DNA of 22,616 nt, from the IMG/VR virus record IMGVR_UViG_3300032288_001128, positions 1 to 22,616 of that record; one strand, 5' to 3'. Source of the stretch: a virus. Below the pieces are notes generated by a model, which saw only the letters and a list, made by a program, of their open reading frames with translations, made no database searches and had not been told where the DNA came from. Each line of letters begins with the position of its first letter. Position 1 is the stretch's first letter. Made by a program: the position numbers and the translations under genes. Of the stretch, positions 1,698-8,254 are shown in pieces.

Positions 1698-1711
1698 TTG
1701 CTCTCCAAAAA

Positions 1712-1747
1712 TAAAAAAAGGGGAGTCCAATTAAATGGAACTCCCCT
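1712..1747 (-). terminator. Rho-independent terminator after the winged-helix gene
   Basis: On the minus strand an AGGGGAGT arm pairs with ACTCCCCT, extended by a GG/CC pair with a one-base bulge, around an A+T loop. A run of seven T follows. It begins 14 bases after the stop of the winged-helix gene. It also sits just upstream of the glycosyltransferase ribosome site, so that gene depends on read-through or on a start not visible here. Confidence 0.88.
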
Positions 1748-1760
1748 GTGTCACCTTAGA

Positions 1761-2030
1761 TTAGGCGGTGAAGCTGTAACCGGCACGAAGAGCAGATTTA
1801 ACCATAGCTTTGGTTGGTGTGCCCATACGATAAACGGAAACTTTAGTACCATCACCACGTGTCTTGGTGTTGGTGTAGATGCAATGACCTTCTTGACGAA
1901 GTTCATCGATACGTGCGGTAACGTTCTGAATACCAAAACGAGCACGGGCTTGTGCAACGGAAAGGGTGTTGTATCCCTCTTTCTTGCTCAGATAGTTGAG
2001 GATGCGTTGCTTGGCGGATACTTTAGACAT
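1761..2030 (-). CDS. Small winged helix-turn-helix protein, probable regulator
   Basis: This 89-residue basic protein has the layout of a winged helix: helix 1 at about 5-15 (SAKQRILNYLSK), helix 2 at 24-32 (SVAQARARF), a likely recognition helix at 35-47 (QNVTARIDELRQE), and a beta wing at about 50-69 (CIYTNTKTRGDGTKVSVYRM). The pattern resembles DNA-binding domains that read 'LS..QA...FGI.N..ARI.ELR..G'. I recall close relatives as conserved unnamed proteins in marine T4-like phages. It is the only gene here with its own consensus promoter and its own terminator. It has a TAGGAG ribosome site. A role as transcription regulator or DNA-binding structural factor is inferred; no target is known. 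Inverted repeats in its promoter are compatible with self-regulation. Confidence 0.75.
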   Translation of the reverse strand: MSKVSAKQRILNYLSKKEGYNTLSVAQARARFGIQNVTARIDELRQEGHCIYTNTKTRGDGTKVSVYRMGTPTKAMVKSALRAGYSFTA

Positions 2031-2055
2031 ATCAATCTCCTAATTACAAAGTTAT

Positions 2056-2070
2056 CTTGCAAATTGCAAG
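2056..2070. promoter_or_regulatory. 15-bp perfect inverted repeat at the predicted transcript start
   Basis: CTTGCAAATTGCAAG consists of two 7-base arms around one base. It lies just downstream of the predicted transcription start (near 2071), about 26 bases upstream of the winged-helix start codon. As DNA it could be an operator. As RNA it could form a 6-bp hairpin with a 3-base loop at the very 5' end, which often stabilises mRNA. Confidence 0.55.
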
Positions 2071-2076
2071 TTTTTC

Positions 2077-2098
2077 TATTATACTAGTATGTATAATA
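2077..2098. promoter_or_regulatory. 22-bp inverted repeat spanning the -10 box and spacer
   Basis: Arms TATTATAC (2077-2084) and GTATAATA (2091-2098) are perfect 8-base complements separated by 6 bases. One arm contains the -10 box of the winged-helix promoter. The repeat also places a TATAAT on the plus strand. A dimeric repressor bound here would cover the -10 region. Confidence 0.5.
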
Positions 2099-2106
2099 CT
2101 TGTCAA
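2078..2106 (-). promoter_or_regulatory. Consensus sigma-70 promoter for the winged-helix gene
   Basis: On the minus strand TTGACA (2106-2101) and TATAAT (2083-2078) are separated by exactly 17 bases, a perfect match to the bacterial housekeeping consensus. The predicted start is near 2071, leaving a leader of about 40 bases before ATG 2030. Host RNA polymerase should use it without phage factors, so expression is probably early unless repressed. Confidence 0.88.
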
Positions 2107-2126
2107 GTGGTTTTGTGGCACACTTG
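2104..2126. promoter_or_regulatory. Inverted repeat overlapping the -35 box
   Basis: CAAGTG (2104-2109) and CACTTG (2121-2126) are perfect 6-base arms 11 bases apart. They overlap the -35 box of the winged-helix promoter and start just beyond the stop codon of the upstream gene. The arms use the same CTTG/CAAG ends as the repeat at 2056-2070. It could be an operator or a weak hairpin; there is no T tract to make it a terminator. Confidence 0.4.
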
Positions 2127-2128
2127 AT

Positions 2129-3394
2129 TTATCTGCCAACTTGTGGCAAATATTTGGCCTTGGTTTCTTCCCACGACATGAAGATAAGATCATCATAGAA
2201 TAGTGATTCATATGATACATTATTCTTTTTCTTCAACATGGAAATTCTACCTTTGGCATATTTGGTTTTCCAAATTTCTGTCAAGGTTTCGACACTGGTA
2301 TCAAAAGACTTTACCAGTTTATCTTCCGTAATTTCTTTACGGAGGAATTCGGGTGTGTTGTTATACAAAGGAGAAAAATAAATTCCCCGTTGATGAGCAC
2401 ACTTTACCATTTCTTTCGGTATTTTAAGTTTACTGTATGCAAAATGCAGAGTTCGGTTTTTATGGTCACGTTTGTATGGTAGGCCATTGGGTTTCTTGGC
2501 TTCCCACCATTCAAAGTAATGTCTTGTATGATTTTCTTTTACCCAATTATAGATTTTATTAAGTACACTTCTATCGGGATCGAAAGCAACAGAGCCGGAA
2601 CTAAAACCCATTTTCTGCCAGTGTTCGAGCCCATCATACTGGGAAAGGCCATTGGATTTTGTATTACCATAAAGGCTAGTAGTAGTAACGCCAACAAGAA
2701 CATTTCCATATTGTTTTTTCCAATCGTTTTGTACAGTGTCAGAAAGACACAACAAGGCCAACAATTTACCGCCCATATAGTTAAATCCAAGAGGTTGTAG
2801 TGGTACAATTGTTGAACCAATTGCTGTGTGGTTAATCATATTACCGGTTGTCTTAATGTCTTTAGGCCAACCGATATATTTATCTCTTGGTGTTAAGTCC
2901 AAGAAATCAGATGAGATGCAAATAACTCCAAGGAATTTTTCAGTCACTTCATCAATGACTGTGTAATATAAGTTGCGACCAATATTGGAGTTGTTCTTCA
3001 TCGTGGAAGAAAATGTGCGTAGAGTATTCCATTTATCGGCCAATGGACCATTTGATAAAACCATTTTAGGTTTCAAATTGGCATAGTCATCGGCATCTTT
3101 AGGCATCCAAATATTGGATTTTATTGAGTTAATTGTGTCCTGTTGAGCCATATCAACCATTTGACGCTCTTCACCGAATAGAGTGGAGATCGTCCTGGTG
3201 GGAAATTTTTCGTGTACTTCACACCATTTTTGATAAAGTGTATATTCACGAACATCCATTTGTGATTTCTGTGACAAATCACCAATAATTTCTTGTTTCA
3301 ATTGTTCTGTATCGATGTGTTGAAAACGCTCTGGCTCATTTTCAATTTGCCATAGTCGCCATTGTTCATCGATATCAGGAATACTTTTCGCCAT
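2129..3394 (-). CDS. Protein with DUF4338/DruA-like core, function unknown
   Basis: The protein has 421 residues. Its middle (about 130-270) matches the pattern I remember for DUF4338, the domain of DruA in Druantia defence systems: GRNLYYTV, a strand ending in SS, RDKYIGW, VPLQPLGFNYMGGKLLALL, then DWKKQYG and a strand with VTTTSLYG. Some authors relate such domains to acyltransferase-like folds, but I cannot verify that here. The N-terminal 120 residues are charged and helical. The C-terminal 150 are basic (for example KRDHKNRTLHF and KGRISMLKKKN) and could contact nucleic acid. The start overlaps the deformylase stop as TAATG, so it is the last gene of the run beginning at uvsY. Function is unknown; DNA modification or interference with host systems are guesses. 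The domain call itself is moderate. Confidence 0.6.
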   Translation of the reverse strand: MAKSIPDIDEQWRLWQIENEPERFQHIDTEQLKQEIIGDLSQKSQMDVREYTLYQKWCEVHEKFPTRTISTLFGEERQMVDMAQQDTINSIKSNIWMPKDADDYANLKPKMVLSNGPLADKWNTLRTFSSTMKNNSNIGRNLYYTVIDEVTEKFLGVICISSDFLDLTPRDKYIGWPKDIKTTGNMINHTAIGSTIVPLQPLGFNYMGGKLLALLCLSDTVQNDWKKQYGNVLVGVTTTSLYGNTKSNGLSQYDGLEHWQKMGFSSGSVAFDPDRSVLNKIYNWVKENHTRHYFEWWEAKKPNGLPYKRDHKNRTLHFAYSKLKIPKEMVKCAHQRGIYFSPLYNNTPEFLRKEITEDKLVKSFDTSVETLTEIWKTKYAKGRISMLKKKNNVSYESLFYDDLIFMSWEETKAKYLPQVGR

Positions 3395-7810: not shown

Positions 7811-7832
7811 TCAAATATACCATAAAAAGTTG

Positions 7833-7861
7833 TTGACAGGGGGCTTGACATGTGATATAGT
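7833..7861 (+). promoter_or_regulatory. Sigma-70-like promoter on the plus strand, antisense to the operon
   Basis: TTGACA (7833-7838), a 17-base spacer and TATAGT (7856-7861) with a TG extended -10 (7853-7854). A second TTGACA sits inside the spacer at 7845-7850. It lies in the 72-base gap between the Sm-like gene and gp55 and points into the antisense strand of the Sm-like gene and uvsW. No convincing plus-strand gene or ribosome site follows, so it may make an antisense or short non-coding RNA, or be chance. Confidence 0.5.
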
Positions 7862-7882: not shown

Positions 7883-8254
7883 TTAATGTATGGATGTTCC
7901 TTTTACGGATTCCAATTCAGATATTGCATCCAGTATTTCTTTTATTTCTTCCTTCTTTCTCTTTTTCTTGGAAGATTCTTCTTCCGGTGCAAAGAGTTTT
8001 TCGGTAACAGTAATAAAATACTCTTTAAAATCATCTGTGGGTTCAAAAGAACAAAGGATATTATCCTTATCTATAGATATCATATCGTTTTTAACCACAC
8101 CCATAGGAATCCATTGCATCATTTGTAAGTTAGCATTTCTAACTTCAAACAACATTGGATTGGTTAACTCAAAGTTGTTTTCTTTTTGTTCAAAGAAACA
8201 AACAACATCAAGACCATCTTTAAATCTTACAATCTTTACTGCTTTATTTTCCAT
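7883..8254 (-). CDS. Sm-like (LSm/Hfq-fold) protein, putative
   Basis: The 123-residue protein begins with strand-rich segments KAVKIVRFKDGLDVVCFF and LTNPMLFEVRNAN, then QWIPMGVV and DNILCSFEPTDDFKEYFI, consistent with the five-strand Sm barrel. It ends in a highly charged tail (EEESSKKKRKKEEIKEIL) that looks flexible. I recall a crystal structure of an Sm-like protein of presumed cyanophage origin with this kind of sequence, and relatives placed next to uvsW and gp55 in cyanophages. That memory, not a search, supports the call. Sm/Hfq folds usually form rings that bind RNA. The gene overlaps the end of uvsW by 11 bases and has an AGGA ribosome site. The alternative is a family-specific protein of unknown function. 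Confidence 0.6.
   Translation of the reverse strand: MENKAVKIVRFKDGLDVVCFFEQKENNFELTNPMLFEVRNANLQMMQWIPMGVVKNDMISIDKDNILCSFEPTDDFKEYFITVTEKLFAPEEESSKKKRKKEEIKEILDAISELESVKGTSIH

What the first reader, a model, noticed from the sequence alone, without database searches (positions are those of the whole stretch)
2056..2126. Three stacked inverted repeats on one consensus promoter
The promoter of the small winged-helix gene has perfect -35 and -10 boxes with 17-base spacing. It is also covered by three perfect dyads: over the -35 (2104-2126), over the spacer and -10 (2077-2098), and at the start site (2056-2070). Two of them share CTTG/CAAG ends. Such density in 70 bases is far above what the surrounding A+T-rich sequence shows, and fits a tightly controlled switch, perhaps self-regulated by the protein it drives.
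Basis: partly seen in the sequence, partly recalled or inferred. Interest (0 to 1): 0.65.

Follow-up and report, generated by a model that had tools for sequence, protein, structure and literature searches.

The report
Conserved 5'-end hairpin of phage mRNA
A small DNA-binding-protein gene in T4-like water phages has a strong promoter whose transcript begins with a hairpin kept in all 79 relatives checked, probably to protect or control the message; it is an RNA structure, not the three stacked repressor sites first suggested.

Summary
The perfect sigma70-type promoter (2106-2078, minus strand) carries three perfect inverted repeats; no other 80-base stretch of the window has three, and none of 5000 local shuffles did. 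Comparison with about 80 related loci shows that they are three different things. (1) The start-site repeat (2056-2070) is in all 79 loci with enough sequence, beginning at about +2 of the transcript. It keeps its pairing through at least nine independent double changes and eleven loop-length changes (3-6 nt), and occurs once per genome. It is a 5'-terminal mRNA stem-loop. (2) The -35 repeat is perfect in only 44 of 77 loci, although gene and promoter remain. (3) The window's -10 repeat is not conserved and is expected about one time in eleven from local composition. The gene is a one-gene unit: promoter, 5' hairpin, short leader, 89-residue winged-helix protein, terminator. A sister clade (about 50% protein identity) has a covarying H-type pseudoknot in the same place. 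Most likely the hairpin shields the 5' end from decay enzymes and makes a stable early message; translational control by the protein itself is the main rival. Three stacked operators are not supported; a -35 operator remains possible. No function was tested.

The parts
2078..2106 (-). sigma70-type early promoter, -35 TTGACA (2106-2101), 17-base spacer, -10 TATAAT (2083-2078)
   Evidence: a TTGAC-type -35 and a near-consensus -10 with 17-18 spacing in all 43 distinct relatives aligned
2071..2071 (-). inferred transcription start (A), 7 bases after the -10
   Evidence: inferred from promoter geometry; the base is A in over 90% of relatives
2056..2070 (-). 5'-terminal mRNA stem-loop CUUGCA-AUU-UGCAAG (conserved core CUUGC/GCAAG), starting at about +2
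   Evidence: paired in 41 of 41 aligned sequences and present in 79 of 79 loci with at least 9 compensatory double changes and at least 11 loop-length changes; predicted in the folded mRNA
2103..2127 (.). inverted repeat over the -35; in most relatives AAGTATA-N7-TATACTT; optional, possible DNA operator or upstream 3' hairpin
2077..2098 (.). inverted repeat over spacer and -10; not conserved on this axis
2037..2040 (-). Shine-Dalgarno GGAG, 15 bases after the hairpin
   Evidence: sequence
1761..2030 (-). 89-residue winged-helix gene (Pfam HTH_39, PHROG 4973)
   Evidence: AlphaFold2 model of winged-helix type, mean pLDDT 82
1710..1746 (-). intrinsic terminator GGGGAGTTCCA-TTTAAT-TGGACTCCCC followed by T-run
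   Evidence: sequence and fold; a terminator of varying sequence follows the gene in the relatives printed

Best explanation
The region is the promoter and 5' leader of a one-gene early transcription unit. Host RNA polymerase starts at about 2071, and the message folds at once into a 5'-terminal stem-loop that leaves about one unpaired nucleotide. It then has a U/A-rich unstructured stretch, the ribosome site, an 89-residue winged-helix protein and an intrinsic terminator. The most likely role of the stem-loop is to hide the 5' triphosphate end from RppH and RNase E, so that together with the 3' terminator hairpin this small message is long-lived and gives much of an early DNA-binding protein. 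Shown here by sequence: the unit, the hairpin, its position relative to the promoter, its universal conservation by covariation, and that it is peculiar to this gene. Inferred: start site, use of the host RNA polymerase, stabilising effect, and role of the protein. The -35 dyad may be an optional operator; the -10 dyad is probably incidental.
For: Hairpin in 79 of 79 loci; at least 6 independent double changes at one pair and at least 3 at another; loop 3-6 nt with at least 11 changes. All 205 pair cells form, against 22-47% when the partner is slid by 1-3 columns. The stem begins at base 8 after the -10, i.e. +2. Of 58 other early promoters of these phages only 6 have any perfect 5-bp stem in that stretch and only one (L122, five A-U pairs) starts at +2; the promoter-plus-CTTGC-hairpin pattern is found at most once per genome. 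A terminator right after the gene is kept in the relatives printed. In most loci the hairpin begins 34-37 nt before the Shine-Dalgarno, so it does not mask it. 5' stem-loops block RppH access in E. coli and raise stability elsewhere (PMC3997798, PMC4843948). The sister clade also has 5'-terminal structure, starting at about +3.
Against: No transcript, half-life or host is known. Stem identity (C-G at pair 1, G-C at pair 4) never varies, which is more than a generic stabiliser needs and may point to a specific binder. The sister clade's pseudoknot is more elaborate than a stabiliser requires. A 5-6 bp stem is modest: the leader's folding energy is only 0.8 sd better than shuffled.
Confidence: 0.5

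Rival explanations
1. The leader stem-loop (and the sister clade's pseudoknot) is an RNA operator: the winged-helix protein, or another phage RNA-binding protein, binds it and spreads over the U/A-rich leader to repress translation, as T4 gp32 does at its own pseudoknot leader.
For: The sister clade has a covarying H-type pseudoknot in the same place (28 of 31 leaders against 3 of 155 shuffled; 9 pairs with double changes). The stem core in the window clade is highly conserved. The A+U-rich unstructured leader before the ribosome site resembles gene 32 (PMC3014915).
Against: Loop sequence and length vary freely. The window clade has no second stem (1 of 43 against 3 of 43 shuffled). Nothing links a winged-helix domain of this family to RNA.
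Confidence: 0.25
2. Classical autorepression: a dimer of the winged-helix protein binds one or more of the dyads as DNA and blocks RNA polymerase.
For: The -35 dyad is a 21-bp palindrome AAGTATA-N7-TATACTT in many relatives, persists with different upstream genes, and is essentially confined to this promoter. The protein is a winged-helix protein.
Against: The -35 dyad is absent or imperfect in about 40% of loci with at least 12 changes, and in one lineage its half-sites change to AACATAT/ATATGTT while symmetry stays. The -10 dyad is not conserved. The start-site half-sites vary in spacing. The shared CTTG/CAAG ends face opposite ways.
Confidence: 0.15
3. The -35 dyad (and the dyad at the end of the upstream gene) form hairpins in read-through RNA at the 3' end of the upstream message, so that all the dyads are parts of stacked RNA structure rather than operators.
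For: T-G mismatches outnumber A-C mismatches 21 to 6 at the -35 dyad. Other early promoters of these phages overlap terminator hairpins.
Against: Most T-G cells come from one column. No T-run follows. The consensus fold of the region gives only the start-site hairpin.
Confidence: 0.08
4. The dyads are chance in A+T-rich sequence.
For: Plausible for the -10 dyad (p = 0.09).
Against: 0 of 5000 shuffles have three; the start-site dyad is universally conserved.
Confidence: 0.02

Closest known systems
5'-terminal stabilising stem-loops of bacterial mRNAs (E. coli ompA and papA, H. pylori vacA)
   Same: stem-loop within a nucleotide or two of the 5' end, ribosome site downstream and free, long-lived message proposed
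   Different: lytic phage gene; small stem of 5-6 bp; stability not measured; stem sequence unusually conserved
T4 gene 32 leader pseudoknot (autogenous translational operator)
   Same: T4-like phage DNA-binding-protein gene with a structured 5' leader followed by an A+U-rich stretch; the sister clade has an H-type pseudoknot
   Different: window clade has a simple hairpin without second stem; protein is a winged helix, not a single-strand-binding protein; no binding evidence
Self-regulating phage repressor operators (lambda-type)
   Same: DNA-binding protein gene with dyads over its own promoter
   Different: dyads are of three different sequences, two are not conserved, and the conserved one has variable spacing and behaves as RNA structure
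HTH_39 winged-helix family (PF14090), PHROG 4973
   Same: protein scores above the curated cut-off
   Different: PHROG 4973 is listed as unknown function; nothing known on leader RNA

Membership tests
5'-terminal mRNA stabilising stem-loop | stem begins within about 1-3 nt of the 5' end | tested here: met
   base 8 after the -10, i.e. +2, in nearly all relatives; the true start is not mapped
5'-terminal mRNA stabilising stem-loop | base pairing is what selection keeps | tested here: met
   at least 9 independent double changes, no broken pair, one G-U
5'-terminal mRNA stabilising stem-loop | removing the stem shortens mRNA half-life | not testable with these tools
   needs an RNA decay assay
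DNA operator of an autorepressor | same half-sites with fixed spacing in relatives that keep the gene | tested here: not met
   start-site spacing varies by 3 nt, -35 dyad perfect in 44 of 77, -10 dyad not conserved
DNA operator of an autorepressor | binding by the gene's own protein | not testable with these tools
   needs gel shift or footprint
gene 32-type leader pseudoknot operator | H-type pseudoknot in the leader | tested here: not met
   window clade 1 of 43 against 3 of 43 shuffled; sister clade 28 of 31
HTH_39 (PF14090) | profile score above curated cut-off | tested here: met
   33.6 bits against 21.3
sigma70-type early promoter | TTGACA-17-TATAAT, conserved | tested here: met
known Rfam RNA family | match at gathering score | tested here: not met
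   no match in the window or in 12 loci

The most novel reading that the evidence does not exclude
A phage winged-helix protein controls its own translation by binding a structured leader RNA, a hairpin in one clade and an H-type pseudoknot in its sister clade, which would be a second T4-type example of pseudoknot-based autogenous control, unrelated to gp32.
Probability: 0.2. Interest if true: 0.7.

Novelty: new member of a known kind. Interest (0 to 1): 0.42.

Why it matters
It shows that a single small regulator-like gene, set apart from the other early promoters examined in these phages, has kept a 5'-terminal RNA structure over wide divergence, and that a sister clade has a pseudoknot there. 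A 2010 review calls the T4 gene 32 pseudoknot perhaps the only viral pseudoknot used to autoregulate translation (PMC3014915), so a second candidate in T4-like phages is directly testable. It also corrects the reading of the dyads as stacked operators.

Tried and rejected
A shared upstream motif TACCACAAA before the -35, also seen at tRNA-cluster and other early promoters, was considered as an activator site. At several of those promoters it is just the last codons (Pro-Gln) of the upstream gene, so it was not pursued as a binding site. A hidden pseudoknot between the window hairpin's loop and the downstream leader: no excess complementarity (3.56 against 3.74 shuffled). Ribosome-site sequestration by leader structure: the consensus fold gives only the hairpin. 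The plus-strand terminator-like reading of 2056-2070 fits the window alone; relatives have no T-run on that side. HTH_39 relatives of this kind in bacterial genomes: none confirmed. Foldseek gave only weak winged-helix hits, E 0.015 or worse. HTVC008M's distant homologue lies in an operon behind another gene and has no comparable leader.

Full report
What was checked. The promoter at 2106-2078 (minus strand) is a perfect sigma70-type promoter and the three dyads are at the stated places, the -35 one being one pair longer than stated. Three dyads of 7 bp or more in 80 bases occur nowhere else in the window, and in 0 of 5000 local shuffles. The observation therefore holds.

Setting. The window is a 22.6-kb virus record of T4-like content: a late sigma factor gp55 homologue and, by inspection of the translated frames, gp46/gp47-, UvsW/UvsY- and structural-protein-like genes. 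The gene driven by the promoter encodes an 89-residue Pfam HTH_39 winged-helix protein. The AlphaFold2 model has the element order of a winged helix with mean pLDDT 82; Foldseek finds only weak winged-helix matches. The gene upstream is DruA/DUF4338-like. An intrinsic terminator follows the gene at 1746-1710, and a terminator of changing sequence stands in the same place in the relatives printed. The gene is thus a one-gene transcription unit.

Relatives. 80 loci with 69-88% protein identity were fetched. Their upstream regions were read, 43 distinct ones aligned and 41 trimmed to the promoter and hairpin. The promoter is kept in every one. The start-site dyad, core CTTGC/GCAAG, begins at base 8 after the -10 with few exceptions, hence at about +2 (the automatic pick in three rows of that table is a different weak stem, but the CTTGC-type stem is there too). 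All 205 pair cells form a standard pair, against 22-47% when the partner is slid by 1-3 columns. On a tree of 77 loci the inner pair changed between C-G and T-A at least 6 times and the middle pair at least 3 times, always on both sides; loop length, 3 to 6 nt, changed at least 11 times; 79 of 79 loci have the stem. A DNA operator would be expected to hold its half-site spacing, so this is best read as an RNA stem-loop. Of 58 other early promoters from ten of the relatives' genomes, six have some perfect 5-bp stem in the first 36 transcribed bases and one of these (L122, A-U pairs only) starts at +2. The promoter-plus-CTTGC-hairpin pattern is found once in 12 of 14 genomes and not elsewhere; the other two carry stem variants.

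The other dyads. The -35 dyad reads AAGTATA-N7-TATACTT in many relatives, is perfect (6 bp or more) in 44 of 77 loci, and was gained or lost at least 12 times. It occurs with different upstream genes and essentially only at this promoter, so it belongs to the promoter, but it is dispensable. In L021 and L036 both arms changed to AACATAT/ATATGTT. It could be an operator or an RNA hairpin; the evidence does not decide. The window's -10 dyad is not conserved on its axis. A neighbouring axis does better, but in most sequence clusters the region has no longer inverted repeat than shuffled sequence.

Sister clade. A Stenotrophomonas phage DLP6 protein is 50% identical to the window protein, and its relatives in the virus collection also stand behind near-consensus promoters and carry a leader structure starting at about +3: stem 1 ATTTGAGAG/CTCTCAAAT, whose loop pairs with a segment just before the ribosome site (GAATCGC/GCGATTC, GGTCGC/GCGACC, GGTCTC/GAGACC, GACTGC/GCAGTC and others). 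It is found in 28 of 31 leaders against 3 of 155 shuffled, with double changes at 9 of 16 pairs; a terminator after the gene was found in 8 of 12 examined. The window clade lacks the second stem. Rfam has no match.

Mechanism. The position of the stem at the very 5' end, the ribosome site lying downstream and free, the 3' terminator and the single gene fit a message built to last: in E. [quoted passage not shown] This step is inferred. The rival, autogenous translational control as in T4 gene 32 (PMC3014915), is favoured by the sister-clade pseudoknot and the unvarying stem pairs, and disfavoured by the free loop. Stacked DNA operators are the least supported of the regulatory readings.

Limits. 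No isolate, host or transcript is known for the window phage; the start site is inferred; loci come from metagenomes and some are near-duplicates, which is why counts of independent changes are given.

Noticed in passing
L166-L216, leaders of HTH_39 homologues (e.g. L201:1435-1495, L206:1423-1479): Covarying H-type pseudoknot in the 5' leader of sister-clade homologues, between transcript start and ribosome site; not in Rfam.
   Followed up: partly
window 7818-7861 (+): Promoter-like TACCATAAAAAGTTG-TTGACA-17-TATAGT on the strand opposite to most genes, just upstream of gp55, conserved at one place in nearly every relative genome; would fire antisense into gene 7883-8254.
   Followed up: no
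L110, L115, L129, L142, L145: Compact terminator-promoter hybrids: the -35 TTGACA sits in the loop of a terminator hairpin and the T-run is the promoter spacer.
   Followed up: no
L098-L101: In four relatives a promoter resembling the HTH promoter stands upstream of tRNA genes such as tRNA-Thr.
   Followed up: partly
window 2129-3394 (-): DruA/DUF4338-like gene directly upstream, in 66 of 79 loci; its last codons form a hairpin (TTTGCCA..TGGCAGA).
   Followed up: no
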